Positions 47,543-63,145 of a stretch of DNA of 64,000 bases are shown in pieces. The stretch's first letter is position 1; the number at the start of each line of letters is the position of its first letter. The stretch is taken from NCBI RefSeq assembly GCF_010731895.1, contig NZ_AP022596.1, forward strand, positions 2,170,001 through 2,234,000, in the 5' to 3' direction. The stretch is from Mycolicibacterium helvum (GTDB lineage Bacteria > Actinomycetota > Actinomycetes > Mycobacteriales > Mycobacteriaceae). The position numbers and the translations under genes are program-made. The notes under the pieces were generated by a model, which was not told where the DNA came from, did no database searches, and worked only from the letters and a program-made list of their open reading frames with translations.

Positions 47543-48381
47543 GGCTTCGGCTCGTTGACGTGGTGGCGTCGCGGCCACACCCGAGAGCGCAGGAATCGGC
47601 GGCCGCGCAGCACTGGCGCATGTGCCAGGCGTTCCCGCCACCGCCGGGCGCGGTCGGCCGGCATGGCCGCGACAATCCGGGCCGCTTCGGTGCGGGGCAA
47701 GGCGCGCAGGATCCGCTCGCCGACCACCGGGTGGGCGACACCAACGACCTCGGCAGCGATATCCGGGCCCCTCGCCACGAGGATCTCGGAGGCCGACTCG
47801 GTGTCCATGCGGCCGACGAGGGCGGCCAGTCCGCGTGCGTCGAGATGGTGTACCGCGGCGAGCGGACTGGCCAGTTGAACGGCGTGGCCCCGCTCAGAGG
47901 TCAAGTGCAGGTCCGACCAGGCGATGGCGTCGCGCGCGGCAGGGCCCGCGATCCGGCCCAGCTTCAGCCGCCGCAACACTGCGCCGAACCCGACTTCGAC
48001 TCCGGCCAGTTCGAATCGACCGGCCGGGGTGCGCGCCAGCACCACGTCGGCGACCCGGGCCAGACGCTGCCCGACGACGTCGACCACTTGGGTGTCCAGG
48101 ACGTCGCGCACCAGCAGGATCTCGCGCTCATCGAGGGTGGCGGCCGCGAACCGTTCGGCACCCGCGGCATCGGCGCTCAGCACCACTTGGCTGGGCCCGA
48201 AGTCGGTCACCTGGTCCCATGGCACCAATAGCGAAGAGCCGTTCCGGCGCGTAATCAGCAGACGTGCCACCAGCTGGGGACCGGATTCACCCAGGCTCGC
48301 GGTCAGGTCGGCGAGCCGGCCGAGCACCCGCCCGTCGGATCCAAGGACGGCGCCACCGGTGACGCCGCTGAGTAACAGCAC
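47539..48381 (-). CDS. PRC-barrel plus MgtE N-terminal domain protein
   Basis: A 280-residue soluble protein. The N-terminal two thirds have PRC-barrel-like strands (VLGSDGRVLGRLADL, QVVDVVGQRLARVADV). From about residue 180 it has MgtE-N superhelix repeats (LAALVGRMDTESASEILV, RILRALPRTEAARIVAAM). In MgtE this domain senses cytoplasmic Mg(II) and gates the channel. Here it is free of a channel but coupled (ATGA overlap) to the Nramp-like gene, so it probably regulates that transporter. GTG start. Confidence 0.82.
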   Translation of the reverse strand: MLLLSGVTGGAVLGSDGRVLGRLADLTASLGESGPQLVARLLITRRNGSSLLVPWDQVTDFGPSQVVLSADAAGAERFAAATLDEREILLVRDVLDTQVVDVVGQRLARVADVVLARTPAGRFELAGVEVGFGAVLRRLKLGRIAGPAARDAIAWSDLHLTSERGHAVQLASPLAAVHHLDARGLAALVGRMDTESASEILVARGPDIAAEVVGVAHPVVGERILRALPRTEAARIVAAMPADRARRWRERLAHAPVLRGRRFLRSRVWPRRHHVNEPKP

Positions 48382-48491: not shown

Positions 48492-49787
48492 ATGTGGGAC
48501 TTCGAAACCGACCCCGAATACCAGAAGAAGCTCGACTGGGTCGAGGAGTTCATGCGTGAGCAGCTTGAGCCGCTGGACTTCGCACCGCTGGACCCCTACG
48601 AGAAAACCAACCCCGAGGTGCTGCGGGTGCTGCGCCCGCTGCAGCAGCAGGTCAGGGACCAGGGGCTGTGGGCCGCGCACCTGGGCCCGGAGTTGGGCGG
48701 GCAGGGCTACGGGCAGGTGAAGCTGGCGCTGCTGAACGAGATCGTCGGCCGGTCTCGCTGGGCGCCTTCGGTTTTCGGATCACAAGCGCCGGACTCCGGA
48801 AACGCCGAGATCCTCGCCATGTTCGGCACCGACGAGCAGAAGAAGCGCTACCTGCAACCACTGCTCGACGGTGAGATCTCGTCGTGCTATTCAATGACCG
48901 AACCGCACGGCGGTTCCGATCCCGGCCTGTTCACCACCCACGCCGAACGCGACGGTGACGATTGGGTGATCAACGGCGAGAAGTGGTTCTCCTCCAACGC
49001 CCGCAACGCCTCGTTCTTCATCGTCATGGTGGTGACGAGCCCGGAAGCCCGCACGCACCAAAAGATGTCCCTGTTCATCGTGCCGGCCGAGACACCCGGC
49101 ATCGAGATCATCCGCAACGTCGGCGTCGGCGGCGAGTCCGACGATCGCGCCGGGCACGGCTACATCCGCTACAACGACGTCCGGGTGCCGGCCGACCACG
49201 TGCTCGGCGGCGAGGGGCAGGCCTTCGCGATCGCGCAGACCCGGCTCGGCGGTGGCCGGGTGCACCACGCCATGCGGACAATAGCGCTGGCCCGCAAGGC
49301 TTTCGACATGATGTGTGAGCGAGCGGTATCCCGGCAGACCCGCCAGGGGCCGCTGGGCAATTTCCAGATGACGCAGGAGAAGATCGCCGACAGCTGGATT
49401 CAGATCGAACAGTTCCGGCTGCTGGTGTTGCGCACCGCCTGGAAGATCGACAAGTACCACGACTACCAGTTGGTGCGCCGGGACATCGCAGCGGTCAAGG
49501 TGGCCATGCCGCAGGTCCTGCATGACGTCGTGCAGCGCGCCATGCATCTACATGGCGCGCTGGGGGTTTCCGATGAGATGCCGTTCGTGAAGATGTTGGT
49601 GGGTGCCGAGTCACTGGCCATCGCCGATGGGCCTACCGAGGTGCACAAGCTGACGGTGGCCCGGCGCACCCTCAAGGAGTACGAACCTGTCGACACGTTG
49701 TTCCCGTCCCAGCACATCCCGACCCGGCGCGCGGCCGTCCAGGCCCGGTTGGCGCAGCTGCTCGAACACGAGGTCGCCGAACTCTGA
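48492..49787 (+). CDS. Acyl-CoA dehydrogenase
   Basis: A 431-residue FAD enzyme introducing a 2,3 double bond in an acyl-CoA. Flavin and substrate motifs are CYSMTEPHGGSDP and WVINGEKWFSSNA; the C-terminal RAMHLHGALGVSDEMPF is the usual terminal motif. The longer N-terminal region fits the ACAD10/11-like or FadE branch found in mycobacteria. It shares one base with the following TetR gene (TGATG). Confidence 0.92.
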   Translation: MWDFETDPEYQKKLDWVEEFMREQLEPLDFAPLDPYEKTNPEVLRVLRPLQQQVRDQGLWAAHLGPELGGQGYGQVKLALLNEIVGRSRWAPSVFGSQAPDSGNAEILAMFGTDEQKKRYLQPLLDGEISSCYSMTEPHGGSDPGLFTTHAERDGDDWVINGEKWFSSNARNASFFIVMVVTSPEARTHQKMSLFIVPAETPGIEIIRNVGVGGESDDRAGHGYIRYNDVRVPADHVLGGEGQAFAIAQTRLGGGRVHHAMRTIALARKAFDMMCERAVSRQTRQGPLGNFQMTQEKIADSWIQIEQFRLLVLRTAWKIDKYHDYQLVRRDIAAVKVAMPQVLHDVVQRAMHLHGALGVSDEMPFVKMLVGAESLAIADGPTEVHKLTVARRTLKEYEPVDTLFPSQHIPTRRAAVQARLAQLLEHEVAEL

Positions 49788-50467
49788 TGGCGGCCGACAC
49801 GTCGGCCAACCTGGTGGCCGCCGCCGAGCGGTTGTTCGCCGAGCGTGGGGTGGACGCGGTGAGCCTGCGGGAGATCGCTCGCGAGGCCGGGGCCCGCAAC
49901 GTGATGGCGGTGCAGTATCACCTCACCGACCGCGCGGGGGTGTTGGCCGCGATCGCCAACAAACACCTGCCGATGGTCGATGCTCGTCGCGGTGCGCTGC
50001 TCGATGCGATCGAGGCCGAGGCGGCGCCGTCCATGCGGTCAATGGCCTCGGCCCTGGTCCGGCCGCTGGCCGCCAAGCTCGCCGACCCCGACGGCGGCCC
50101 GGCGTTTCTGCGCATTCACGCCGATCTGCTGAACCGGCCGGTGCCCACCTTCGATTTCACCGGCCACTCCAGCAGCCTGCAACGCTGGCGCCGGCTGCTT
50201 GAGCCGTTGTTCGATCCGGTGGCCGTCACGCTGCATCCCCGGCTGGGAGCGCTGGTGTACACCGCGGTCGAGTTGGGCCGCCGCGCAGCCACCGCGCCGC
50301 ACGCCGACGACCGGCTGTTCATCAGCCACCTGGTCGACACGGTCGCCGCGATGCTCGCCGCAATGCCCTCGGAGGAGACCCGATCCTTGGCGAAGGAGCG
50401 CCAGGCGCGCCGGCCCAGGCGAGCATCGGCCGCACCGGACCCGGCGAATTCCGGTCGCCGTCAATAG
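49787..50467 (+). CDS. TetR family regulator
   Basis: A 226-residue regulator with HTH LREIAREAGARNVMAVQYHL and a Pro/Arg-rich tail (residues 200-226). Coupled to the acyl-CoA dehydrogenase, so it probably senses an acyl-CoA and controls that gene. Its stop overlaps the end of a short leftward frame. Confidence 0.88.
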   Translation: MAADTSANLVAAAERLFAERGVDAVSLREIAREAGARNVMAVQYHLTDRAGVLAAIANKHLPMVDARRGALLDAIEAEAAPSMRSMASALVRPLAAKLADPDGGPAFLRIHADLLNRPVPTFDFTGHSSSLQRWRRLLEPLFDPVAVTLHPRLGALVYTAVELGRRAATAPHADDRLFISHLVDTVAAMLAAMPSEETRSLAKERQARRPRRASAAPDPANSGRRQ

Positions 50468-50568
50468 ACCGACTTGCCCGTCAGCACCCACGCCCACCAG
50501 CGCAGGAACCGGCGTGACATGCCCCAGGGGGTCCTGGTGGGCGCCGATGACACCATCCCAGCGGCCAT
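50461..50568 (-). CDS. Possible 35-residue small protein next to the PKS
   Basis: An ATG frame ending in TGA, rich in Trp and Arg (GMSRRFLRWWAWVLTGKSVY at the C-terminus). It reads like real coding sequence rather than a shadow; the codons before the ATG (YETWSHNV) also look coding back to a stop at the IdeR-like box. No ribosome site is seen. It may be a small membrane-associated peptide or the tail of a lost gene. Confidence 0.35.
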   Translation of the reverse strand: MAAGMVSSAPTRTPWGMSRRFLRWWAWVLTGKSVY

Positions 50569-50599
50569 GACGTTGTGCGACCATGTCTCGTATGAGGTA

Positions 50600-50623
50600 C
50601 GAGGTTAGGCAAGGCTATGCTTC
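50600..50623. promoter_or_regulatory. IdeR/DtxR-like iron box upstream of the PKS
   Basis: TTAGGCAAGGCTATGCTTC at 50605-50623 matches 13 of 19 positions of the IdeR consensus TTAGGTTAGGCTAACCTAA; the register starting at 50600 also matches 13. It covers the ATG at 50617 and lies 24 bases before the GTG at 50647. Confidence 0.55.
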
Positions 50624-53600
50624 TATGGCGTTCGGGACGCTGTGCCGTGGCGCCTGAAGCGACGGTTGGCCAGGCCGAACAGGGCGACCCGATCGCCGTC
50701 GTCGGCATCGGCTGCCGGGTAGCGGGCAACGTCACCACCCCGGCCGCATTCTGGACGTACCTGATGGAAGGCCGCAGCGACGTCCGGGAGATTCCCGAAG
50801 AACGCTGGGAGCCGTACCTGCACCGAGACCCGCGCAACGCCGCCGTGTTGCGGGATGTGACGCGTCGGGGAACCTTCCTCGACGCCCTGGACGCCTTCGA
50901 CGCCGAGTTCTTCGGGGTGTCCCCGCGCGAGGCAGAGTTGATGGATCCTCAGCAGCGCCTTGCCCTTGAAGTGAGCTGGGAGGCGCTCGAGCACGCGGGT
51001 ATCTCTCCGCGCTCGCTGGCCGGCAGCGACACCGCCGTGCTGATGGGCGTGAACTCCGACGACTACGGCAAGCTCATCATGGAAGATCTGCCCGGTATCG
51101 AGGCGTGGACCGGAATCGGTACCTCGCTGTGCGGCATCGCCAACCGGGTCTCATATCTGCTCGACCTGCGAGGACCGAGCGTCGCCTTGGATGCCGCGTG
51201 CGCAGCGTCGCTGGTCGCAGTCCATCAGGCCTGCCAGATGCTGAGGGCGGGCGAGACCTCGCTCGCCCTGGCGGGCGGCGTCAGCGCGCTGATCGGGCCC
51301 GGGCTGATCCGAGTGCTCGACGAAGCAGGCGCCACCGCGCCCGATGGCCGGTGCAAGACGTTCGACGAGTCCGCCGACGGGTACGGCCGCGGCGAAGGCG
51401 CCGGTGTTGTTGTGCTCAAGCGGTTGGCCGACGCCACGCGTGACGGTGATCGGGTGCTCGCCGTCGTGCTCGGCGGCGCCGTCGCTCAAGACGGCCGAAC
51501 CGTGGGGATCATGTCGCCCAATGGCGACGCCCAGGCGGCGCTGTTCCGACGGGTGTGCGAAAGTTCGCGTGTCTCACCGCAATCCGTGGACTACGTCGAG
51601 GCGCACGGCACCGGTACGCCGACGGGCGACCCGGTCGAGGTCAACGCGCTGGCGGCTGTCTACGGAGCCGGTCGCGACAATGACGCACGGTGCCGGATCG
51701 GATCCGTCAAGCCAAACGTCGGCCACCTCGAGGGCGGAGCCGGCGTGATCGGGCTCATCAAGGCGGTGCTGGCCCTGCACCACAAGGCGATTCCGCCGAC
51801 TGCCGGCGTACGCCAGCTCACCTCGGCGGTGGACTGGGCAGCGAGCGGACTTCGTGTTCCCACCACAGTCGAACGGTGGGAATCCGTTGACCGCCCACGC
51901 CGCGCAGCCGTGTGCAGCTACGGATACGGCGGCACCATCGCTCACGTTCTGCTGCAGGAGGCTCCCGAGTCTCACGTCGAGGCGGTCGACGCACCGCAGG
52001 CCGACACGCCCCTAATCGTGCCGTTGTCGGCCCGATCACACGAGCGTCTGAAGCACCACGCCGATGCGCTGGCCGATCACCTCAGGACGGTATCGTCGCC
52101 GGTCGCCGAGATCGCCGCCACGATGTGGCGACGCCGAGCACACGATCCGATCCGAGCGGCAGTCATCGCGGCGGCACCTCATGAACTCACGTCGGGCCTG
52201 GACTGCATCGCGCGCGGGGAAACCACCGCAGACGTGACCACCGGGCCGGCGCTGCCCGGTGAGACCCGTGCGCCGGTATGGGTGTTCTCCGGTCACGGTT
52301 CGCACTGGGTCGGGATGGGCCGCGAGCTGCTCGATACCGAACCGACCTTCGCGCGGGTCATCGATGAGGTTGACGAGGTGTTCGCCGCCGAACTCGGATT
52401 CTCCGCCCGCGACGCGTTCACCACCGGTGAACTCGGTAGTACCGACCGCATTCAGGCGTTGACCTTCGCGGTGCAGGTCGGCCTGGCCGCGGTGCTCGGC
52501 GACCGTGGGGTCACGCCGGCCGCCGTGATCGGACACTCGGTCGGCGAGGTGGCAGCCTGCGTGGCAGCCGGTGTGTTCGATCTGCGTCAGGGCGCAGCGC
52601 TCGCGTGCTACCGAGCCCGGGGGTTTCGGTCCGTGCTGGGCCAGGGTGCGATGGCACTCGTCCGACTGCCGTTCGCCGAAGCCGAAGCCAGGTTGACGGG
52701 GCACACCGACGTGGTCGCCGCCATCAGCGCGTCACCCGAAACGACGGTGATCTCCGGTGACACCGACGCCGTGTTGGCCATCACTCACGCGTGGAAGGCC
52801 CAGGGCATCGAGACACGCCAGGTCAACACCGATGTGGCATTCCACAGCCCCGCGATGGACGCTCTCACCGGCGAGCTGGCGCGGCTGGTCGCAGGTCTGC
52901 ACCCGTCGCGCCCGCCAGCGGTGCCGTTGTATACGACCGCCCTCGACGATGCCCGCTCCCAGGCACCGCGCGGGCCGGAGTATTGGGTGGCGAACTTGCG
53001 CGGCCGGGTTCGATTCGCCGAGGCGATCACCGCAGCAGCCGAAGACGGCCACCAGCTGTTCCTGGAAGTATCCGCGCACCCCGTTGTCTCGCACTCGATC
53101 GTGGAGACGTTGCTGCATCTGGGCATCGATGAACACGCTGTTGTCCCGGTGCTGCGCCGTGACCAACCTGAGCGTCGCGCCGTTGCCGTCGCGGTCGCGT
53201 CGTTGTGGTGCCACGGCGCCGAGGTCGCGCCCGCTGTCGCACCGACAGATCCGTGGGCCACGGACCTACCCGGCACGCAGTGGCGGCACAACCGGTTCTG
53301 GCGGGTACCGACACAGCCTCCCGGAGTGCGCGGTGTTCACGACCCGCAGAGCCACACCCTGTTGGGTGGACGCATCGATCTCGCCGGCACCCCCGACACG
53401 TGTCTGTGGGAGACCCAGCTGGACATGTCCACTCGTCCCTACCCGGGCGACCATCCAGTGCACGGAACCGAAATTGTCCCTGCCGCAGTACTTTTGAACA
53501 CATTATTGACCGCCGCCCACGGCGGGGAGGACATCGGCGCGCACTGCATCGGGCTTGCCGACGTGCGACTGCGCACACCGGTACTACCGAGCCGTCCGCT

Positions 53601-55881
53601 CGATCTGCAGGTGGTGCGCAACGGCCGGGGGCTGACGCTGTCGACGCGGCGGACCGGCGCGGACACCGCAACCGACGGCTGGCTCACGCACACCAGCGCC
53701 GTCATCGCGGTCGGGGACGATATCGACGAACTTCTTGCCTCACGCCTCGATTTGGACGCCGCGCGGGTGCGCTGTGCTGAAGCATTGCCGCCGAATCACG
53801 TCATCGACACATTGGCCGATCTCGGCGTAGCCGCGATGGGTTTCGACTGGCAGATCACCGAATTGATGCGTGACCACGGGGAAATCTTGGCAGTCGTGAA
53901 GTCGAATCCGCACGGTGCGGGTGCGACATCGTGGGCCTCACTTGTCGATGCGGCCACCTCGACTGCGTCTACGGTCTTCGATACGCCCGGTGTTCGGCGC
54001 TGCCTGCGGATGCCCGCGCGTATCGAACGCGTGCACGTCCACGGCCCTGCCCCCGCTACTGCGACGATCCTCGTACGGCGACGGCCGGAGGGGATCTGCA
54101 CAGATGCAGCGATTGCCGATGACAACGGCACCGTGCTGCTGTCTATCGCCGGGATGGCGTTCGAAGAGCTTGAAAATGACGGAGTTTCGGCGAACAACAC
54201 CCAACGCATGGTGCATCACGTTGGATGGCGCCCGGTGGGCGTCCGCCCCGATGAACACCCCAGCGGAGTCGTGCTGGTCGGCGGTGACGGCGAGGGACTC
54301 AACCGCATGATCGACGATCTGGCGGCCGCCGGATTGCCCTATCGAGCCATTGAAGACCCCGCGGATATTGGTGTCGGCGAGACGATTCCGGACACCGACC
54401 GGTTCCCCGCCGAGCTTGGCGCCACACCCGTGGTCCTCGTGCTCCCGCGCACCGACGACACTCCCGAAGCCTCAGTCGATCTTGTGCTGAGAACGCTTGT
54501 GCGGCTGCAGAACTTCGGAATACAGACCCGAGTATGGGTCAGGACCACCGGCGTACATGAAGGTACGAACCTCAGCCAGGCACCGTTGTGGGGGCTGGCC
54601 AGGGTGGCCGCAGCAGAGCATCCCGCGCTGTGGGGCGGCGCTGTCGACGTACTCGACGGTCGGTTCCCGTTCGCCATGCTCCCCTCGCTGCACGGTCACG
54701 GTGTTGTCGTTGTCCGCGACGGTGTCGCCCAGATCGCGCGGCTGGCACCGACTGTTTCGCGTCCCGCGTCGGGCGCGCCTCTGCAGTGCTCACCGGGGGG
54801 CACATACCTGATCACCGGTGGCACCGGCGTTCTCGGGTTGCGCATGGCGCAGCGCCTCGCTGATTTGGGGGCACGCAGGCTGCTGCTGTTGTCGCGCTCA
54901 GGTGTGTCGCCGCGGTCCCAGTGGGCGGACGAGCCCCGCGGTGAAGCCGTCGCAGCCATCACAGCACTGGAAGCCCAAGGCGTGTCTGTCCATGTCGCTG
55001 CGGTCGACATTGCGGCCTCCGATGCCGCCGACACGCTGCGCGCCGTGATGGCCGATCTGCCACCTGTGCTCGGCGTGATCCACGCTGCGGGCGTGGAGGC
55101 TGGTGCACTGCTGATGAATACGAGCTCCGAGGACATCGCCGCCACGATGCGGCCCAAGGTGCACGGGGCACTCACGCTGCACCGGCTGTTCCCGCCCGAG
55201 CAACTCGAGTGGATGGTGCTGTTCTCCTCGTGCGGGTATCTCGCGGGCTTCCCGGGCCAGGGCGCCTACGCGTGTGCGAACTCGTTCCTCGACGTGATGG
55301 CGCGGCACCGCCGCCGCCTGGGCGACCGCACCACCGCGATCGCCTGGACAGCATGGCGCGGCCTCGGCATGGGGTCGACATCGGAGTACGTCGCGGCGCA
55401 ACTGGACGCATTCGGGATGGGAACCGTCACCGCAGACGATGCGATGCGCGCGCTCGATATCGCCATGCGCGACGATGACCCCAATATTGTTGTGCTGCCG
55501 TTGCTTCCGTCGGCCACAGCGCTACCCATCTTTGCCGACGCCGTGTCGGATCCAGAGGATGAAGCAGATTCCGACGGCCCGGCTCACCCCACCAAACCAG
55601 GCCGGGTACTCGACCCGGACTCACTGACGCAGGAAGTCCTCGGGGCGGTGTCCGTCCAGCTCGGAGTGCCCGGCACCGAGGTGGACCCGGAGGTGCCGTT
55701 GTTCGAACTTGGCGTCGACTCGATCATGGCCGTGCGATTGCGACGTGAGCTCGAGAAGCAAACCGGGCTCTCGTTGCCGCCAACACTGCTGTGGGAGCAT
55801 CCCACCACCGGCGCAGTCACCGAGAAGTTGGCGGAGCTGTTGGGTTTCTCGCGCGAACCGCAGGAGGTCGAGTCGGCGTGA
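50617..55881 (+). CDS. Iterative type I PKS, 6-methylsalicylic acid synthase-like (KS-AT-DH-KR-ACP)
   Basis: A 1754-residue single-module PKS. Residues from the ATG at 50617: KS with DAACAASLV (Cys 195), EAHGTGTPTGDP and NVGH; AT with GHSVGE (Ser 641) and VAFHSP, the malonyl-type pattern; DH/TH with HPVHGTEIVP (His 946); KR with TGGTGVLG (1400) and Ser/Tyr in FSSCGYL and GAYACAN; ACP with LGVDSI (Ser 1702). Order and length are those of bacterial and fungal 6-MSA synthases, which use malonyl units repeatedly. No TE or ER. GTG 50647 is an alternative start, since the iron box covers the ATG. It converges with the aryl-AMP ligase, 9 bases apart. Confidence 0.93.
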   Translation: MLLWRSGRCAVAPEATVGQAEQGDPIAVVGIGCRVAGNVTTPAAFWTYLMEGRSDVREIPEERWEPYLHRDPRNAAVLRDVTRRGTFLDALDAFDAEFFGVSPREAELMDPQQRLALEVSWEALEHAGISPRSLAGSDTAVLMGVNSDDYGKLIMEDLPGIEAWTGIGTSLCGIANRVSYLLDLRGPSVALDAACAASLVAVHQACQMLRAGETSLALAGGVSALIGPGLIRVLDEAGATAPDGRCKTFDESADGYGRGEGAGVVVLKRLADATRDGDRVLAVVLGGAVAQDGRTVGIMSPNGDAQAALFRRVCESSRVSPQSVDYVEAHGTGTPTGDPVEVNALAAVYGAGRDNDARCRIGSVKPNVGHLEGGAGVIGLIKAVLALHHKAIPPTAGVRQLTSAVDWAASGLRVPTTVERWESVDRPRRAAVCSYGYGGTIAHVLLQEAPESHVEAVDAPQADTPLIVPLSARSHERLKHHADALADHLRTVSSPVAEIAATMWRRRAHDPIRAAVIAAAPHELTSGLDCIARGETTADVTTGPALPGETRAPVWVFSGHGSHWVGMGRELLDTEPTFARVIDEVDEVFAAELGFSARDAFTTGELGSTDRIQALTFAVQVGLAAVLGDRGVTPAAVIGHSVGEVAACVAAGVFDLRQGAALACYRARGFRSVLGQGAMALVRLPFAEAEARLTGHTDVVAAISASPETTVISGDTDAVLAITHAWKAQGIETRQVNTDVAFHSPAMDALTGELARLVAGLHPSRPPAVPLYTTALDDARSQAPRGPEYWVANLRGRVRFAEAITAAAEDGHQLFLEVSAHPVVSHSIVETLLHLGIDEHAVVPVLRRDQPERRAVAVAVASLWCHGAEVAPAVAPTDPWATDLPGTQWRHNRFWRVPTQPPGVRGVHDPQSHTLLGGRIDLAGTPDTCLWETQLDMSTRPYPGDHPVHGTEIVPAAVLLNTLLTAAHGGEDIGAHCIGLADVRLRTPVLPSRPLDLQVVRNGRGLTLSTRRTGADTATDGWLTHTSAVIAVGDDIDELLASRLDLDAARVRCAEALPPNHVIDTLADLGVAAMGFDWQITELMRDHGEILAVVKSNPHGAGATSWASLVDAATSTASTVFDTPGVRRCLRMPARIERVHVHGPAPATATILVRRRPEGICTDAAIADDNGTVLLSIAGMAFEELENDGVSANNTQRMVHHVGWRPVGVRPDEHPSGVVLVGGDGEGLNRMIDDLAAAGLPYRAIEDPADIGVGETIPDTDRFPAELGATPVVLVLPRTDDTPEASVDLVLRTLVRLQNFGIQTRVWVRTTGVHEGTNLSQAPLWGLARVAAAEHPALWGGAVDVLDGRFPFAMLPSLHGHGVVVVRDGVAQIARLAPTVSRPASGAPLQCSPGGTYLITGGTGVLGLRMAQRLADLGARRLLLLSRSGVSPRSQWADEPRGEAVAAITALEAQGVSVHVAAVDIAASDAADTLRAVMADLPPVLGVIHAAGVEAGALLMNTSSEDIAATMRPKVHGALTLHRLFPPEQLEWMVLFSSCGYLAGFPGQGAYACANSFLDVMARHRRRLGDRTTAIAWTAWRGLGMGSTSEYVAAQLDAFGMGTVTADDAMRALDIAMRDDDPNIVVLPLLPSATALPIFADAVSDPEDEADSDGPAHPTKPGRVLDPDSLTQEVLGAVSVQLGVPGTEVDPEVPLFELGVDSIMAVRLRRELEKQTGLSLPPTLLWEHPTTGAVTEKLAELLGFSREPQEVESA

Positions 55882-55890
55882 TCGCGGCGG

Positions 55891-57540
55891 TCAGCTGAGA
55901 ATGCTCGCGACGAGCTTCTTCTTGTCGACCTTCCCCACCGCAGTCATCGGCAACGACGGCACCGGTACCACCATGTCCGGGCGAGCGTGCTTGGAGGCTC
56001 CGCGCTCGTCGAGAAAGGCGTTCAGCTCCACCAGACCGATCGGCGGTCCGCTGAAAACAACTGCCGCGCAGATTTTTTCACCTAGATAGTCGTCGGGCAA
56101 TGCGACTGCGGCAGCCGAGTACACGGCCGGATGAGTCACTAGGTGGTCTTCGAGGTCAGTGGCCGATACGGTCTCGCCGCCACGGTGGATCACATCCTTG
56201 ATCCGGCCCGTCACCTCCACATAGCCCGCTTGGACGCCGTCGGCACTGATACGCACACGGTCGCCTGTTCGGTAGAACCCGTCGGGACTGAAGGATCGTG
56301 CGTTGGCATCGTCGTCCCGGTAGTACCCGTTGAGTGTGTAGGGGCCGCGCACCAGAAGCTCACCTTCCTCGCCGGGAGCTACCGGCGCACCCGACTCATC
56401 GACGACCCGCATCTCGTCGTGCGGTGACATCGGTCGCCCCTGGGTGTTCATCACCACATCGACCGGATCTCCGGGTCGGGTGAAGTTCAACATCCCCTCA
56501 GCCATGCCGAAGATCTGCTGGAGCCCGGTGGTCAGCCCGTTGTAGATGTAGTTCGCCTCGTCGGGCGACATTCGCGAGCCACCCACCTGAACCAGGCGCA
56601 GCGATGTCGGAAGCACCGGCTCCCACTCGCAGGCCTGCGTCCAGACCTTCGCCAAAGCGTTGACGAGTCCGGTGACCGTAACCCCGTGACGGTCGATCAA
56701 GTCGAACGCCGATTCCGGGCTGGGGTCGTCGGTGAAAACGACGGTGGCGCCGACGCTCATCGCGCCGAGCAGGCCCGGGCAGGCGAACGGGAAATTGTGC
56801 GCGGCCGGAAGTGCGACCAGGTAGACGTCCTCGTGCACGAGCTCGCACGCTTGCGCACATGCCCTCGCGTTGTAGGTGTAGTCGTCGTGGGTGCGAGGAA
56901 TCAGCTTCGGTAATCCGGTTGTGCCGCCGGACACCAGGAGCACAGCGGGCATGTCGGTGTCGGCGGTCAAGGCCGGTGGGGCGCCGCCGTCCGATTCCGC
57001 CAGTGCAGACCAGGATTGGAACGTGCCGGGCTCGCCGTGCACGAGCACATGCTGCAACTGTGGACGATTCTCAACGAGAGCAGCGGCCATCTCGCGGTAA
57101 TCGAATCCGCCGGCGACGTCGGCGATCACCATGCCGACCGCCCCGCTGACGTCGGCGAAGTGTGCGAGCTCGGCGGTGCGATGCCCGGGTAGGCACATCA
57201 CCGGCACGGCCCCCGCGCGCAGCAGTGCGAATACGGCGACGGCGAACTCACGCGAGTTGGGTAGCTGCAGCAGCAGGCGATCGCCCTGTGCGATGCCCCG
57301 GGCCGCCAGGCCGGCCGCGAACCGGTCGGCGAGCGCATCGAGATCGGCGAAGGTGTACTCGCCCTGGGAGTCGATCACCGCGGTCTTCTGGGGCCAGTTA
57401 CCGGCGGCCTCGCGCAGTATTGTGTCGAGACGCCGACCCAGCCAATACCCGGTCCGCCGGTACTCGGCAGCACGGTCTTCAGGAAATGGCACGAAGCCGT
57501 TCCTGAAATCGGATTTCTCGTGGTCAGAATCGGTATTCAT
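55891..57540 (-). CDS. Aryl-acid adenylate-forming ligase (MbtA/DhbE type)
   Basis: A 549-residue ANL enzyme that activates an aryl acid as its AMP ester and loads it on an aryl carrier protein. The ATP loop is LLVSGGTTGLPKLIPRTHDD. The aryl-acid pocket begins with LPAAHNFPFACPG, whose Asn contacts the 2-hydroxyl in DhbE. FGMAEGMLNFTR and YRTGDRVR follow, and the C-terminal Lys is in AVGKVDKKKL. Most similar to MbtA/EntE-type ligases. Its partner is the ArCP of the divergent NRPS; its substrate is probably the PKS product. Confidence 0.92.
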   Translation of the reverse strand: MNTDSDHEKSDFRNGFVPFPEDRAAEYRRTGYWLGRRLDTILREAAGNWPQKTAVIDSQGEYTFADLDALADRFAAGLAARGIAQGDRLLLQLPNSREFAVAVFALLRAGAVPVMCLPGHRTAELAHFADVSGAVGMVIADVAGGFDYREMAAALVENRPQLQHVLVHGEPGTFQSWSALAESDGGAPPALTADTDMPAVLLVSGGTTGLPKLIPRTHDDYTYNARACAQACELVHEDVYLVALPAAHNFPFACPGLLGAMSVGATVVFTDDPSPESAFDLIDRHGVTVTGLVNALAKVWTQACEWEPVLPTSLRLVQVGGSRMSPDEANYIYNGLTTGLQQIFGMAEGMLNFTRPGDPVDVVMNTQGRPMSPHDEMRVVDESGAPVAPGEEGELLVRGPYTLNGYYRDDDANARSFSPDGFYRTGDRVRISADGVQAGYVEVTGRIKDVIHRGGETVSATDLEDHLVTHPAVYSAAAVALPDDYLGEKICAAVVFSGPPIGLVELNAFLDERGASKHARPDMVVPVPSLPMTAVGKVDKKKLVASILS

Positions 57541-57586
57541 CGGCGAAGATCAACCCCTCGACTGGGCCCTGTCAGCGTCATTTCCT

Positions 57587-57620
57587 ATAGGGTAGCCTCC
57601 ACTAAGTTAGGGCAGCCTTG
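57587..57620. promoter_or_regulatory. Paired IdeR/DtxR-like boxes between ligase and NRPS
   Basis: Two AGGGYAGCCT cores (57589-57598 and 57609-57618) lie exactly 20 bases apart. The surrounding 19-mers match the IdeR consensus at 13 (57587-57605) and 12 (57602-57620) of 19 positions. M. tuberculosis mbtA-mbtB also has IdeR boxes in the divergent gap. Confidence 0.55.
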
Positions 57621-57651
57621 GTAGCTGGAATCCGATGCGGGAGGTTCAACA

Positions 57652-60600
57652 GTGGGTATCCGCTCAACGACGCCGGAGAGCGTCCGAGACGAGGTTGCCG
57701 AACTGCTCGGAGTGGCCCCTTCCGCCGTGGACACCGAGGCTGACTTGATCGCGTCGGGGCTGGATTCGATTCGGATGATGTCGTTGTCGGGACGGTGGCG
57801 CAAGCAAGGCATCCGCATCGGCTTTGCCGAATTGGCGGCCGACCCCACCGTGGCCGCATGGACCGATCTCGTCGCACAACGCCAGCCCCCCGCCGAACCG
57901 ACACCGGGGGTCCCCCACGAGATCGAGGAGTACGCCGGGGATCCCGACGCACCGTTCCCGCTCGCTCCGATCCAGCATGCGATGTGGGTGGGTCGGCACG
58001 GCGAACAACAACTCGGCGGTGTCGCGGCGCACCTCTACGTCGAGTTCGACGGTATCGGTGTCAATCCCGAGCGGTTACGCACTGCTGCAACGAAACTCGC
58101 CGCTCGCCACCCGATGCTGCGTCAGGAGATCCTTCCCGACGGCACTCAGCGGATTAGCGACCGAGAGCTGCCGGTAAAGCTCCACGACCTCCGTGAACTC
58201 GACTCACACGCCGCCGCGGAGCGCCTGGAACAGATCCGCCACGAAAAGTCGCACCAGCTGCTCGAGGAGGAAGTGTTCGAGATTTCGCTGTCGCTGCTCG
58301 CCGGCGGCCGTACCCGCCTGCACGTCGATATGGACATGCAGGCTGCCGACGCGGTCAGCTATCGCAATCTGATGGCGGACCTTGCCGCCCTCTATCGCGG
58401 CGTCGAACTGCCCGAGCTGGGTTACACCTATCGCGAATACCGTGCGCGACTGACCGAAACGACTCCGCCACCCTCAGCGGAAGACATCCAGTGGTGGGCG
58501 CAGCGAGTTCCCGACCTCCCGGAACCACCTGCGCTGCCCGTGGTTCCCCGCTCCGACCAACGCGACCCGCGCCGCAGTGTCCGGCTCTGGCACATATTCG
58601 ACGTACCGACCCGTGACGCGCTGTTCGCAGCCGCGCACCGTCGCGGAATCACTCCGGCGATGGCAGTGTGCGCCTCCTACGCCAATGTCCTGGCGCATTG
58701 GTCGGCAAACCGGCGATTTCTGTTGAACCTGCCGATGTTCGGGCGGGAGCCCTACCACTCCGACGTCGAGAAGTTGGTCGGCGACTTCACCTCGTCGTTG
58801 ATGCTCGACATAGATTTGGCCGGCACCGACAACGCCGAGTCGCGGTCGAGAGCGGTGCAGGAGGTACTGCATGCGACGGCCTGCCATTCGGCGGTCTCGG
58901 GTCTGGACGTTCTGCGCGATGTCGGCCGCCACCGAGGCACTCAGACGCTGGCAACGATCGTCTACACCAGCGCCCTAGGGCTGGGTGACCTATTCGCGGG
59001 TGACGTCACCGATCAGTTCGGCGCGCCGGTGTGGACGATATCGCAAGGGCCGCAGGTGCTGCTCGACGCGCAGGCGACACCTCTCGCCAACGGCCTGATG
59101 ATCAACTGGGACGTCCGCGTGGAGGCATTTCCGCCGGGAGTTCCCGAAGCGATGTTCGCCTATCATATCGCTGAGCTGAAACGGCTGGCCGACGATGATT
59201 TCGCTTGGGATGCAACAGATCCGCCCGCACTGGCGGCTCAGAGTCGCGCCGTCCGAGACGCCGCCAACGCCGTCGTCGTCCCGGCGAGCGGAGACAGTCT
59301 GATCGACGGCTTCTTCCGTAACGCACGGAGTCGGCCCGACGCCACGGCCGTGATCAGCGGCGGTGCCACACTCACCTACGGCGAATTGGATCGCAGAGTG
59401 CGGGCGGTCGCCGCGGCGCTGCAAACGAGTGGTATCGGCCGCGGGGATATCGTCGCGCTACTGGGACCCAAGAACTTTGAACAGATCCCCGCACTACTGG
59501 CGATCCTGGCGACCGGCGCGGCATACCTCCCGGTGGGCATTGACCAGCCGGCAGATCGCGCAGCACGCATCCTTGAGACCGGCGGTGTGAAGTTCGTCCT
59601 CACAACGGGTTCCGATCTACCGGACACATCGTTACCCGCCCTCACGGTCGCCGGAGCCGAGAGGCTGGGTACGCCGGCTGATTTCAATCCTGTCCAGATC
59701 GCTGCCGACGACCTGGCCTACGTGCTGTTCACGTCCGGCTCGACTGGGGAGCCCAAGGGGGTGGAACTCACTCACGACGCGGTGATGAACACCCTCGAAT
59801 ACCTCTACCGGCACTTCGATATCGGCCCCAGCGACCGTGCGCTCGCGCTGTCGCACCTCGAGTCCGACATGTCCGTGCCCGATGTGTTCGGCACGCTTCG
59901 GGCCGGCGGCGCGCTCGTCGTGGTCGATGAGGAGGATCGGCGCGACCCGGACACGTGGGCACGGCTGATCCAGCAACATAGCGTCACGGTGGTCAACTTC
60001 CTGCCCGGCTGGCTGGAGATGCTCCTCGAGGTGGGCGGCGATCTCTCCGCGCTGCGGGTGGTGCTTGCCGGCGGGGACGTGATTCGGCCCGAACTGGTTC
60101 AGGCCCTGCGGCGACGGTCCCCGGGCGTCCGCTTCGCCGGCCTCGGGGGTGCCACCGAAACCGCGGTTCACGGAACCCTTTTCGAGGTCGTTGGGGACCC
60201 ACCATCGCAATGGCCGTCGATCCCCTACGGAGTGCCCTTTCCGAACAACATGTGCCGCGTGGTGGACCCCACCGGAGAGGACTGCCCGGACTGGGTGGCC
60301 GGCGAACTGTGGTTCGGCGGGCGCGGCCTCGCGAAAGGTTATCGCGGCCGGCCTGACCTGACCGCGCAGAGGTTCGTCGAGTACCAGGGCCACACCTGGT
60401 ACCGCACCGGCGATGCCGCGCGATACTGGCCGGACGGAACGATCGAGTTCCTCGGCCGCCTTGACCACAGAGTCAAGATCAGCGGGTACCGGATAGAGCT
60501 CGGCGAAGTCGAAGCCGCGCTCCTGCGCATCGAGGGTGTCAGCGCGGCCGTTGCCGCGGTCGTGCACGTGGATGGTCGCGAGCTACTCGGCGCGCTGGTG

Positions 60601-61125
60601 TGCACCACTGGCCCCGCGGCAGACCGCGGCGATATCTCCATACAGCTGGCCGAATTACTGCCCCCACATATGATTCCGGCGATACTCATGACCACTGAGC
60701 GCATCCCACTGACGATCGGCGGCAAGATCGACCGCCGAGCCGCAGCACAGCGTCTGGCTGCGGCGTGGCTGCCCGCATCGGACGAATACCGCTCGCCGTC
60801 AACTCATCTCGAGAAGGCGCTCGCCGGACTGATGGCCGAAGTGCTCGGCACCACCGAGGTCGGTGCCGACCAGGATTTCTTCTCACTTGGCGGTGATTCG
60901 GTGATGGCAACCACTCTCGTGGCCCGTATCAGGAATTGGCTTGATACCGACACGGTCATGGTGGCCGACGTCTTCGCGACGCGAACCGTGGAGCGGCTGG
61001 CCCAACAGTTGTCGGAGCGCGAAGCCGGCAGCGACCGCCTCGAGAGTGTCGCGGAGTTGTATCTGGAGATCGCCGGCATGGACAGCGCCGAGGTCATGTC
61101 CGAGCTGGAGCGCTCGTCCGGCTAA
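57652..61125 (+). CDS. NRPS with ArCP-Cy-A-PCP domains (MbtB-like, no thioesterase)
   Basis: A 1157-residue synthetase. ArCP at 5-75 with GLDSIRM (Ser 39); cyclization domain at about 95-520 with the DxxxxD motif DMQAAD (228-233) in place of HHxxxDG; adenylation domain at about 545-1020 with LFTSGSTGEPKG and GLGGATET, the GGATE form seen in Ser/Thr/Cys-activating Cy modules; PCP with LGGDSVM (Ser 1083). It should condense an aryl acid with Ser, Thr or Cys and close an oxazoline or thiazoline. M. tuberculosis MbtB is about 1400 residues and ends in a TE, which is missing here. The GTG start has GGGAGG 7 bases upstream. Confidence 0.93.
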   Translation: MGIRSTTPESVRDEVAELLGVAPSAVDTEADLIASGLDSIRMMSLSGRWRKQGIRIGFAELAADPTVAAWTDLVAQRQPPAEPTPGVPHEIEEYAGDPDAPFPLAPIQHAMWVGRHGEQQLGGVAAHLYVEFDGIGVNPERLRTAATKLAARHPMLRQEILPDGTQRISDRELPVKLHDLRELDSHAAAERLEQIRHEKSHQLLEEEVFEISLSLLAGGRTRLHVDMDMQAADAVSYRNLMADLAALYRGVELPELGYTYREYRARLTETTPPPSAEDIQWWAQRVPDLPEPPALPVVPRSDQRDPRRSVRLWHIFDVPTRDALFAAAHRRGITPAMAVCASYANVLAHWSANRRFLLNLPMFGREPYHSDVEKLVGDFTSSLMLDIDLAGTDNAESRSRAVQEVLHATACHSAVSGLDVLRDVGRHRGTQTLATIVYTSALGLGDLFAGDVTDQFGAPVWTISQGPQVLLDAQATPLANGLMINWDVRVEAFPPGVPEAMFAYHIAELKRLADDDFAWDATDPPALAAQSRAVRDAANAVVVPASGDSLIDGFFRNARSRPDATAVISGGATLTYGELDRRVRAVAAALQTSGIGRGDIVALLGPKNFEQIPALLAILATGAAYLPVGIDQPADRAARILETGGVKFVLTTGSDLPDTSLPALTVAGAERLGTPADFNPVQIAADDLAYVLFTSGSTGEPKGVELTHDAVMNTLEYLYRHFDIGPSDRALALSHLESDMSVPDVFGTLRAGGALVVVDEEDRRDPDTWARLIQQHSVTVVNFLPGWLEMLLEVGGDLSALRVVLAGGDVIRPELVQALRRRSPGVRFAGLGGATETAVHGTLFEVVGDPPSQWPSIPYGVPFPNNMCRVVDPTGEDCPDWVAGELWFGGRGLAKGYRGRPDLTAQRFVEYQGHTWYRTGDAARYWPDGTIEFLGRLDHRVKISGYRIELGEVEAALLRIEGVSAAVAAVVHVDGRELLGALVCTTGPAADRGDISIQLAELLPPHMIPAILMTTERIPLTIGGKIDRRAAAQRLAAAWLPASDEYRSPSTHLEKALAGLMAEVLGTTEVGADQDFFSLGGDSVMATTLVARIRNWLDTDTVMVADVFATRTVERLAQQLSEREAGSDRLESVAELYLEIAGMDSAEVMSELERSSG

Positions 61126-61934
61126 GGGCGTGGCACCGATCGTAGGATCGCCAAACCCTCCTGAACGAGCGTCGCGGTGCGGACCTTCTCGGCGTCGTAG
61201 AGGTTCAGGGTGACCAGGCCACGCCCGCGCGCGGCTGCCGGTGAGCGCGACTCCAGCAAGTTCCACTCCCCGGCCCGGATGGGGCGGTGAAACCAGATCG
61301 ACGAATCCGTGGTGGCGGTGCGGTGGCTGCGGTCGGTCATCGTGTGGCCGTGTACCTGCAGCACCGGGTCGATGCCGTAGATGTCGGTGATGTACACCGC
61401 AGCGCACTGCGCTAACCACGGCTTGCCGTCCAGCGGCACCGTGACCCGCCACCACAGCCGGCGGACGAATTCTCCTGTGCTCCAGTCGTCCTCGTAGCGG
61501 ATGTCGATCTCGTCGAGCGGTAGCGACGGGGCCGGGCCGATCGGGCCGGTGGCGGGCAGCTGTTCGGGATCGTGTGGTGTCGTTGCATGCACGGCGTGCT
61601 CGGGCCCGTCGGCCGCGGCCGAGAACGAGACGGTCGCCGTGGTGAGCAGCCGGCCCTCCTGGCGGGCCAGCACCCGGCGCGAGGCGGCGGTGCGCCCTTC
61701 GTAGACACGGTCGACCTCGTAGTGCACCGGCGCGCCCGCGTCACCGCCGCGCAGAAATTGCACGTGCAGGCTCGTCGGGGTCTTGTCGGCGTCCACGGTG
61801 TGACAGGCCGCGGCCATGGCCTGCGCGGCGAGATGTCCACCGTAGGCGCGCTTCTCGGCGGGTCCGCTTTCGGCGCCGACGAAGCTGTCGGCGCCCGATG
61901 CGGTGACGTCGAGCAGTCGGGCCAACACGCTCAC
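61122..61934 (-). CDS. Acyl-CoA thioesterase (TesB-like)
   Basis: A 270-residue double-hotdog thioesterase. N-terminal hotdog marks: RAYGGHLAAQAMAAA and SLHVQFLRGG; C-terminal hotdog with DSSIWFHRPIRAGEWNLLE. It hydrolyses acyl-CoAs. GTG 61934 overlaps the CoA-transferase stop (GTGA), so it belongs with that gene and lipid metabolism. Its stop overlaps the NRPS stop tail to tail. Release of the NRPS product by this enzyme is possible but not favoured. Confidence 0.88.
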   Translation of the reverse strand: MSVLARLLDVTASGADSFVGAESGPAEKRAYGGHLAAQAMAAACHTVDADKTPTSLHVQFLRGGDAGAPVHYEVDRVYEGRTAASRRVLARQEGRLLTTATVSFSAAADGPEHAVHATTPHDPEQLPATGPIGPAPSLPLDEIDIRYEDDWSTGEFVRRLWWRVTVPLDGKPWLAQCAAVYITDIYGIDPVLQVHGHTMTDRSHRTATTDSSIWFHRPIRAGEWNLLESRSPAAARGRGLVTLNLYDAEKVRTATLVQEGLAILRSVPRP

Positions 61935-63145
61935 GTCAGCTTGGTTCCCGTTGCCACGGTGCCGGATTCGACCAGACTGGCGATCTTCTCGGCGGTGAAT
62001 CCAGCCTCGGTCAACACTGCCGCGGTGTCGTCGCCGAGCGCGGGGGCGGGCTGCGCCGCGACGTGCGCGCCGTCGACGGACATCGGCAGACCCGGCGCCA
62101 GGTAGTTGCCGATCCTGGGTTGCGCCAGCATCGTGAACAACGGGTTGGCGGTCACCCGTGGGTCCTCGGCAACTTCGGCGAAGTCCAGGTAGCGGTCCCA
62201 CAGCACCGAGGTTTGCGATAGCGCGGCTGCCACCTGCTCGGCGGTGTGGCTGGTGAACCACGGCGCGAACAAGCCGCTGAGCACCGCACGATGCTCGTAG
62301 CGCTGGCCCTCGTCGTTGAAGTCCGCACCCAGCGCTTCGGCCACCGCGGCAACGGCTTTGGCGGTACCGGTCAGCTCGGCGAGATCGCGGAAGTGCCGGC
62401 TGGTGAGCGCCACCAGCATGAAGGTCACGCCGTCGCCGCTGGTGTAGTCCTGACCGTACTGCCCGTAGATCGCGTTGCCCAGGCGTGGACGCTGGGTGCC
62501 GTTGACCATCGGCTCGGTGAGGAATCCGAGGTTGGCCGCGGTAGCCAGCGCGACATCGTCCAGCGGCAGCCGGATGCGGCTGCCCGCCCCGGTGGCGTCG
62601 CGGCGGCGCAGCGCCGCCAGGATCGCCAGAGCCGCGTACAAACCGCAGCTGACGTCCCAGGCCGGCAGCACGTGGTTGACGGGGCCGCCCTGTGCGGGTG
62701 ATCCGGTAACCAACGGAAATCCGGTGGCCGCGTTGACCGTGTAGTCGACGCCGGTTGATCCGTCACCGCGGCCGACCACTTCCAGGTGGATCAGGTCTGG
62801 GCGCTGGGCACTCAACTCCTCATAGGAATGCCATTGCCGCCCAGCGACATTGGTGATCAGGATGCCGGCGTCGGCGATCAGTTGGGCAACCAGCCGCTGG
62901 CCTTCCTCGGAGCGCATATTGGCGGCCACCGAGCGTTTGCTCTTGTTGAGCCCAGCCCAGTAGATGCTGTCACCGGCCTCGGTCACCGGCCAGCGCTTGT
63001 AGTCGGCCGCCCCGCCGACCGGATCAACCCTGATGACCTCGGCACCCAGCTGCGCCAGAGTCATCCCGGCCAGCGGCACCGCCACGAAGCTGGAGATCTC
63101 GACAATGCGGACACCTGCCAACGGCAGGTCATCAGAAGCGCTCAC
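61931..63145 (-). CDS. CaiB/BaiF family CoA transferase
   Basis: A 404-residue family III CoA transferase. Typical N-terminus LAGVRIVEISSFVAVPLAGM and LNKSKRSVAANM; the catalytic Asp is probably that in LPAWDVSCGLYAAL (about 175). It moves CoA between carboxylic acids, often in fatty or aromatic acid catabolism. Coupled with the TesB-like gene. Substrate unknown. Confidence 0.9.
   Translation of the reverse strand: MSASDDLPLAGVRIVEISSFVAVPLAGMTLAQLGAEVIRVDPVGGAADYKRWPVTEAGDSIYWAGLNKSKRSVAANMRSEEGQRLVAQLIADAGILITNVAGRQWHSYEELSAQRPDLIHLEVVGRGDGSTGVDYTVNAATGFPLVTGSPAQGGPVNHVLPAWDVSCGLYAALAILAALRRRDATGAGSRIRLPLDDVALATAANLGFLTEPMVNGTQRPRLGNAIYGQYGQDYTSGDGVTFMLVALTSRHFRDLAELTGTAKAVAAVAEALGADFNDEGQRYEHRAVLSGLFAPWFTSHTAEQVAAALSQTSVLWDRYLDFAEVAEDPRVTANPLFTMLAQPRIGNYLAPGLPMSVDGAHVAAQPAPALGDDTAAVLTEAGFTAEKIASLVESGTVATGTKLT

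What the first reader, a model, noticed from the sequence alone, without database searches (positions are those of the whole stretch)
50617..61125. PKS-NRPS cluster predicted to build an alkyl-salicyl oxazoline or thiazoline
Seen: a 1754-residue KS-AT-DH-KR-ACP enzyme, an MbtA/DhbE-type aryl ligase and an ArCP-Cy-A-PCP NRPS, all adjacent. Known: iterative PKSs of this exact layout and length make 6-methylsalicylate or related acids; aryl ligases load such acids on ArCPs; Cy domains close heterocycles on Ser, Thr or Cys. Inferred: the PKS replaces salicylate synthase (no MbtI-like gene is seen here) and the product is a methylsalicyl-capped azoline, perhaps a chelator. This differs from mycobactin, which uses chorismate-derived salicylate. 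The ligase and NRPS alone would be called mbtA/mbtB, hiding the novelty.
Basis: partly seen in the sequence, partly recalled or inferred. Interest (0 to 1): 0.88.

Follow-up and report, generated by a model that had tools for sequence, protein, structure and literature searches.

The report
Methylsalicylate starter cassette for mycobactin
A mycobacterium appears to have lost the usual salicylate-making start of its iron-scavenging pathway and gained a three-gene cassette predicted to start it with 6-methylsalicylate, which may be the genetic basis of methylated mycobactins known from old chemistry.

Summary
In detail: a KS-AT-DH-KR-ACP synthase, an MbtA-type aryl ligase and an ArCP-Cy-A-PCP NRPS lie side by side. 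The reading is largely supported and sharpened. The synthase groups with aromatic actinobacterial PKSs and its catalytic residues are intact; relatives occur in M. phlei, M. thermoresistibile and M. fortuitum, whose mycobactins I recall as 6-methylsalicyl. Of 148 genus genomes, 117 have MbtB: 66 with MbtI only, 45 with this PKS only, 6 both, none neither; no PKS genome lacks MbtB. MbtB phylogeny makes this largely one old association. In this genome, however, the trio is a 10.7-kb insertion at a site that is empty in 6 of 7 sisters, and about 300 kb away the native mbtI-mbtA-mbtB is deleted, leaving an in-frame scar before mbtE-F-G. Two other genomes (G031, G110) also have the trio far from mbtC-F and no native mbtA/mbtB there. 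Best reading: a starter cassette (6-methylsalicylate to methylsalicyl-oxazoline) feeding a mycobactin-type line. The product is inferred, not measured. Nine literature searches of an open-access library gave no paper assigning such a PKS to mycobactin. New variant of a known kind.

The parts
50617..55881 (+). Iterative type I PKS, KS-AT-DH(PT/TH-like)-KR-ACP, predicted 6-methylsalicylate synthase (likely start GTG 50647)
   Evidence: domains; KS tree; catalytic residues invariant in 39 of 39 mycobacterial rows; DH best PDB hit AviM PT
50605..50623 (+). IdeR (iron) box-like site before the PKS, degenerate here (6 mismatches to a recalled consensus)
   Evidence: 23 of 39 PKS upstream regions reach <=5 mismatches against 12 of 780 control windows and 0 of 390 shuffles; this genome has 6, a level that chance also gives (0-4 sites per shuffled 64 kb, 4 in the window)
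55891..57540 (-). MbtA-type aryl-AMP ligase, salicylate-class pocket with a PKS-type signature
57587..57605 (.). IdeR box-like site between mbtA and mbtB (5 mismatches)
   Evidence: <=5 mismatches in 33 of 40 PKS-type and 14 of 20 MbtI-type mbtB upstream regions
57652..61125 (+). MbtB-type NRPS ArCP-Cy-A-PCP, no thioesterase
50414..61137 (.). Inserted segment carrying the trio (ends approximate); site empty in 6 of 7 sister genomes
49787..50467 (+). tetR-type gene (named by eye), left flank of the insertion; match to sisters ends near 50413
61122..62261 (-). ORF holding an acyl-CoA thioesterase (TesB-like), right flank; next to the tetR-type gene in sisters

Best explanation
The trio is a starter-unit cassette for a mycobactin-type siderophore. 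The PKS condenses one acetyl and three malonyl units, reduces once, cyclises and releases 6-methylsalicylate (inferred from family and motifs). The ligase adenylates it and loads it on the ArCP of the NRPS (inferred from family, pocket and neighbourhood). The NRPS activates Ser or Thr and its Cy domain closes a 2-(6-methylsalicyl)-oxazoline (inferred). The PCP-bound cap is passed in trans to MbtE-MbtF, encoded about 300 kb away with MbtG (genes shown; hand-over inferred). In this lineage the native chorismate-based starter genes mbtI-mbtA-mbtB were removed by a deletion that left an in-frame mbtI'::mbtB' fusion before mbtE-F-G, and the trio was inserted elsewhere (both shown by comparison with sisters; order of events and horizontal origin inferred).
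For: Co-distribution: of 117 MbtB-bearing genomes out of 148, 66 have MbtI only, 45 the PKS only, 6 both, 0 neither; 0 of 51 PKS genomes lack MbtB. In 48 of 51 PKS genomes PKS and MbtB lie on one contig, gap 1.7-15 kb, 39 of 48 under 2.5 kb; in 45 of 51 MbtD is within 13 kb of MbtB, so the trio is usually part of the mbt locus. Insertion and scar in this genome. MbtB tree: this genome's MbtB sits inside the PKS-type clade of 40 rows (SH-aLRT 100), its sisters G043, G018, G004 on the MbtI side. A second lineage: G031 and G110 have the trio about 3 Mb from mbtC-D-E-F, with no mbtA or mbtB found at that locus. MbtA pocket: salicylate-class His, Asn, Cys, Leu kept in 55 of 55 rows; I343, M350, F353 nearly fixed in 40 PKS-type against V, L, Y in 15 MbtI-type. 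A predicted natural fusion of this PKS type to a DhbE/MbtA-type ligase, 43% identical to P0002. Iron-box-like sites before PKS and mbtB in relatives. Same PKS in M. phlei, M. thermoresistibile, M. fortuitum.
Against: No product was measured. DH/KR sequence does not prove chain length or a single reduction. PKS-type MbtB rows are one clade, so most of the co-distribution is one old event and the pocket differences may be inherited by descent. Six sampled genomes keep both MbtI and PKS, including G031 and G110, so the PKS need not replace MbtI. MbtD is absent from this genome, so the final molecule is not a textbook mycobactin. The iron box before this genome's own PKS is no better than chance by score. 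The Gly of the DH HxxxGxxxxP motif is kept in only 30 of 39 rows. The chemotypes of named species are recalled.
Confidence: 0.8

Rival explanations
1. Same cassette, but the PKS makes another aromatic acid (orsellinate-like, a longer naphthoate, or a differently alkylated salicylate).
For: The DH domain is closest in the PDB to AviM PT of an orsellinate synthase; the clade includes a KR-less Nonomuraea enzyme.
Against: KR Lys, Ser, Tyr and Asn intact in 39 of 39 rows, so an unreduced acid is unlikely; ligase keeps the salicylate-class Cys and Leu; the PKS occurs in species recalled to make 6-methylsalicyl mycobactins.
Confidence: 0.1
2. The trio makes its own small aryl-azoline and does not feed MbtE-F-G.
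For: It sits about 300 kb from mbtE-F-G; the fusion ORF keeps a second MbtB-type PCP.
Against: No TE in the NRPS; mbtE-F-G kept open would otherwise have no starter; the C-terminal tail of P0003 resembles those of MbtBs of mbt loci; in 45 of 51 PKS genomes MbtD is within 13 kb of MbtB; in G031 and G110 too the distant trio holds the only MbtB found.
Confidence: 0.08
3. The siderophore line is decaying in this genome: mbtI-mbtA-mbtB lost, trio kept only by chance.
For: mbtI is truncated and MbtD is absent.
Against: Trio and mbtE-F-G frames are open without stops; catalytic residues intact; MbtD is missing in the seven sisters too, so that is not a new decay.
Confidence: 0.07

Closest known systems
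Cahuitamycin pathway, Streptomyces gandocaensis (PMC4757757; matched passages seen)
   Same: A KS-AT-DH-KR-ACP 6-MSAS unlinked to the NRPS cluster is proposed to supply 6-methylsalicylate to a salicylate-AMP ligase and an oxazoline-forming NRPS.
   Different: There the MbtI homologue CahI is kept and both starters are used; here mbtI is deleted, and ligase and first NRPS sit with the PKS.
Mycobactin mbt locus (mbtI-mbtA-mbtB-...-mbtG)
   Same: MbtA, MbtB, MbtE, MbtF and MbtG homologues (the last three named by order and domains); iron-box-like sites; trio part of this locus in most PKS genomes.
   Different: Starter acid from a PKS, not chorismate; trio displaced from mbtE-F-G; no MbtD in this genome.
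6-Methylsalicyl mycobactins P, H, F (recalled from Snow's work, in no call)
   Same: Predicted head group; the PKS is present in M. phlei, M. thermoresistibile and M. fortuitum.
   Different: Known chemically; I found no gene assignment in the searched library.
AviM, bacterial orsellinate synthase (PMC9135731; matched passages seen)
   Same: Iterative type I PKS with a DH-fold domain acting as aldol cyclase; His-Asp pair.
   Different: AviM is KS-AT-PT-ACP without KR; P0001 has an intact KR.

Membership tests
Bacterial 6-MSAS-type (partially reducing iterative) PKS | Single-module KS-AT-DH-KR-ACP, about 1700 aa, no ER or TE | tested here: met
Bacterial 6-MSAS-type (partially reducing iterative) PKS | KS groups with aromatic iterative PKSs, not with the genome's other PKSs | tested here: met
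   98/93, 31 rows; the reference names are automatic annotations, none experimentally proven here
Bacterial 6-MSAS-type (partially reducing iterative) PKS | Intact KS, AT (malonyl-type AFH motif), DH/PT His-Asp, KR and ACP residues | tested here: met
   39 of 39 mycobacterial and 9 of 9 other actinobacterial rows; AFH as malonyl motif is recalled
Bacterial 6-MSAS-type (partially reducing iterative) PKS | Makes 6-methylsalicylate | not testable with these tools
   no enzyme assay
MbtA salicylate-AMP ligase | Homology to MbtA/DhbE and salicylate-class pocket (Cys and Leu at DhbE 240 and 337) | tested here: met
   the Cys/Leu rule is recalled
MbtA salicylate-AMP ligase | Uses salicylate rather than 6-methylsalicylate | tested here: inconclusive
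   pocket signature differs from MbtI-type MbtA, but no activity data
MbtB | ArCP-Cy-A-PCP with Ser/Thr-type A pocket | tested here: met
   same residue mix as 20 MbtI-type MbtBs; pocket code not assigned against a reference structure
Canonical mycobactin pathway | Chorismate-dependent salicylate synthase MbtI | tested here: not met
   only an N-terminal remnant fused to a PCP
Canonical mycobactin pathway | MbtC/MbtD PKS pair | tested here: not met
   no MbtD over the cut-off or at E<=1e-150 in this genome; MbtC not searched on its own

The most novel reading that the evidence does not exclude
A PKS-mbtA-mbtB starter cassette was inserted whole into a mycobacterium whose own chorismate-based starter genes were excised, retrofitting an existing MbtD-less line to make an undescribed 6-methylsalicyl-oxazoline siderophore: a natural starter-unit swap caught with both insertion site and scar, with a parallel displacement in a second lineage (G031, G110).
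Probability: 0.6. Interest if true: 0.75.

Novelty: new variant of a known kind. Interest (0 to 1): 0.66.

Why it matters
It offers a gene for the methylated head group of several classic mycobactins and makes that assignment directly testable. About a third of the sampled genomes (51 of 148) carry this PKS, 45 of them without MbtI, so MbtI is not universal to mycobactin-type synthesis, which bears on MbtI as a drug target in non-tuberculous species. And this genome looks like a natural experiment in swapping the starter unit of an NRPS line, with the cognate ligase and first NRPS moving together.

Tried and rejected
Modular, non-aromatic PKS: rejected by the KS tree. Dihydroxybenzoate ligase: the pocket has Cys at the DhbE Ser240 position and Leu at Val337. 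A second intact mbtI-mbtA-mbtB elsewhere in this genome: not found. mbtI or mbtD merely relocated: no model over the cut-off. The co-distribution p value (3e-26) is not used as proof of repeated coupling, since PKS-type MbtB is one clade. The second A domain of MbtE was first taken as special to this genome; it is widespread (43 of 148 at >=65% identity, three of them partial matches; 6 further matches at 41-43% in very long ORFs left out). Base composition as proof of transfer: the trio has GC3 0.77-0.78 against 0.80-0.90 for eight neighbouring genes, while PKSs of three relatives have 0.85-0.88; weak. Rows: 5 of 20 fetched MbtI genomes were dropped from the MbtA comparison because no MbtA over 500 bits lay beside MbtB; at least two species stand twice in the 40 PKS-type rows (L029 with G068, L033 with G142). 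In G043 the right flank of the insertion site was not found within the 17 kb fetched, so the empty site is 6 of 7. Three of 15 named loci (L027, L030, L036) show no mbtA/mbtB in the fetched flank. Iron box: no site with up to 3 mismatches in the window; 4 sites with up to 6 mismatches, as some shuffles give. Eleven of 39 PKS upstream regions scored 8 or worse: the nine whose PKS runs co-directionally with mbtA (G016, G026, G031, G034, G086, G096, G101, G110, G121), plus G039 and L034; L034 has a 4-mismatch site just past the aligned start.
Full report
What is there. The window is bases 2170001-2234000 of a single 6.40-Mb contig; named relatives of the PKS are Mycolicibacterium or Mycobacterium records. 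The PKS probably starts at GTG 50647: the closest stored copy is 1744 aa and an iron-box-like site covers 50605-50623.

The PKS. KS Cys-His-His, AT Ser, DH/PT His and Asp, KR Lys-Ser-Tyr-Asn and ACP Ser are invariant in 39 of 39 mycobacterial rows and 9 of 9 other actinobacterial rows; the residue four after the DH Asp is Ser in all 48; the Gly of HxxxGxxxxP varies (30 of 39) (the contrast of Ser with the Gln/His of ordinary dehydratases is recalled). The DH domain's best PDB match is 7vwk (E 1.5e-31; next 4.5e-6), which a paper search and matched passages identify with the product-template domain of orsellinate synthase AviM, an aldol cyclase with a DH-like fold (PMC9135731). In a KS tree of 31 rows it falls with 15 aromatic-type actinobacterial PKSs (98/93) and apart from the five other KS rows of its own genome and an MbtC. 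Several database sources name these relatives '6-methylsalicylic acid synthase'; these are the sources' names, not tested functions.

The ligase and NRPS. P0002 is 43% identical to the ligase part of P0188, a predicted 2368-aa protein in which a PKS of this type is fused to a DhbE/MbtA-type ligase, a hint that the PKS product is the ligase substrate. Across 40 PKS-associated and 15 MbtI-type MbtA rows the residues His248, Asn249, Cys254 and Leu351 are kept in 55 of 55, while I343 (39 of 40 against V in 15 of 15), M350 (39 of 40 against L in 15 of 15) and F353 (40 of 40 against Y in 14 of 15) separate the groups. Passages of PMC10745912 list V352, C263 and L360 among M. tuberculosis MbtA active-site residues; I map them to I343, C254 and L351 by a constant offset of 9. 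In MbtB the A-domain pocket segments show the same mix in both groups, but the Cy motif has V235 in 38 of 40 PKS-type against M in 20 of 20 MbtI-type, and the ArCP has A34 in 40 of 40 against 2 of 20. That fits a bulkier starter, but both groups are clades, so descent alone could give it.

Distribution. In one sample of 148 genus genomes, MbtI (TIGR03494 over cut-off) occurs in 74, the PKS at 63-100% identity in 51 (53 genomes have a match at the threshold, two of them, G019 and G070, only at 40-41%, left out; G020's match covers only residues 632-1748), and MbtB in 117. Of the 117: MbtI only 66, PKS only 45, both 6, neither 0. No PKS genome lacks MbtB; two MbtI genomes do. In the 48 genomes with both on one contig the PKS-MbtB gap is 1.7-15 kb, and in 45 of 51 MbtD lies within 13 kb of MbtB. 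In G077, G119 and G021 the order is (mbtI in G021)-PKS-mbtA-mbtB-mbtC-mbtD-mbtE-mbtF-mbtG; G033, G039 and G016 differ in part (MbtC called by its KS). In nine genomes the PKS runs co-directionally with mbtA. Among 15 named loci, mbtA and mbtB lie within 10 kb of the PKS in 12 and mbtI in 3 (septicum, porcinum, URHD0025). Named database entries, from lists capped at the best 120, include M. fortuitum, M. septicum and M. goodii, M. phlei and M. thermoresistibile; 12 named copies compared are 62-71% identical to P0001. From recall, mycobactins P (phlei), H (thermoresistibile) and F (fortuitum) carry 6-methylsalicylate; no call confirms this.

The swap in this genome. About 300 kb away lie genes that I name mbtG, mbtF and mbtE (2143 aa) by order and domains. 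In front of them is a 210-aa ORF that joins the N-terminus of MbtI in frame to the last PCP of an MbtB. In sisters G043 and G018 the same two ends lie 5.9 kb apart, one in mbtI and one near the end of mbtB, with the rest of mbtI, mbtA and most of mbtB between; the matches to the two ends overlap by 6-7 bases. This genome's MbtE second A domain is 87-92% identical to those of seven sisters, all of them MbtI-only. Conversely, in 6 of 7 sisters the matches that end at window 50412-50413 and begin again at 61138-61146 are neighbours (12-111 bases between), so the trio is a clean insertion here; in G043 the right flank was not found. In the MbtB tree (62 rows) this genome's MbtB is deep in the PKS-type clade, while those of the three sisters included are outside it. 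So the starter genes of this line were exchanged as a set.

A second case. G031 and G110 have MbtI, mbtC-D and mbtE-F at one locus but no mbtA or mbtB there, while PKS-mbtA-mbtB, holding the only MbtB match of each genome, is about 3 Mb away. Their MbtBs pair together in another part of the PKS-type clade. So the trio stands in for a lost mbtA-mbtB in two lineages; in these two mbtI is kept, so the ligase may use either acid there. I have not looked for a scar in them.

Regulation. With a recalled IdeR consensus, 23 of 39 PKS upstream regions have a site with at most 5 mismatches, against 12 of 780 control windows and 0 of 390 shuffles; upstream of mbtB it is 33 of 40 (PKS-type) and 14 of 20 (MbtI-type). 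This genome has 6 mismatches before the PKS, no better than chance by score, and 5 before mbtB; the fusion ORF has a 4-mismatch site directly upstream. Passages of PMC9505556 report iron boxes before mbt genes of M. abscessus.

How it works. Shown: gene content, insertion, scar, co-distribution, intact motifs. Inferred: 6-methylsalicylate as product, its loading by the ligase, oxazoline formation on Ser/Thr, and transfer to MbtE. The final product here cannot be classic mycobactin if MbtD is truly missing, as it is in this genome and its seven sisters (11 of 117 MbtB genomes lack a match at E<=1e-150). The second A domain of MbtE may supply the replacing unit, but 34 genomes have both, so this is open.

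Known or new. The chemistry of 6-methylsalicyl mycobactins is old (recalled). The closest worked-out pathway seen is cahuitamycin C (PMC4757757, passages), where an unlinked 6-MSAS is proposed to supply the starter beside a kept salicylate synthase. Nine full-text searches of the open-access library on this question (listings, with passages of PMC6262359 and PMC10296737 checked) gave no paper that assigns such a PKS to mycobactin; subscription papers were not searched. I therefore rate it a new variant of a known kind.

Noticed in passing
G000:C1:1922971-1923600 (L022), minus strand: In-frame mbtI'::mbtB' fusion ORF of 210 aa behind an iron-box-like site; it may still be expressed as an orphan PCP in front of mbtE.
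   Followed up: partly
G000:C1:1916499-1922930 (L021/L022): MbtE has a complete second A domain that by eye lacks the usual Asp in its A4 motif; present in 43 of 148 genomes. This genome and seven sisters have it but no MbtD, so it may activate a non-amino acid in place of the MbtC/MbtD unit.
   Followed up: partly
P0188 (unnamed jgi protein, 2368 aa): Predicted fusion of a 6-MSAS-type PKS with a DhbE/MbtA-type aryl ligase.
   Followed up: partly
G021, G128, G135, G141 and L025, L026, L037: mbtI kept directly beside the PKS; these species might make both salicyl and 6-methylsalicyl mycobactins.
   Followed up: no
L157/L158 (G031) and L159/L160 (G110): mbt loci with mbtI, mbtC-D, mbtE and mbtF but no mbtA/mbtB; the only MbtB lies with the PKS about 3 Mb away.
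   Followed up: partly
L097:9019-14265 (Pseudonocardia plasmid pLS1-1): Related aromatic PKS on a plasmid of a Pseudonocardia whose source is given as Apterostigma, with an adenylate-forming enzyme, acyl-CoA reductase and P450 nearby.
   Followed up: no
window 46304-48381: NRAMP-like metal transporter ORF with an MgtE-N/PRC-like ORF beside it, a few kb left of the insertion; named by eye, not searched.
   Followed up: no
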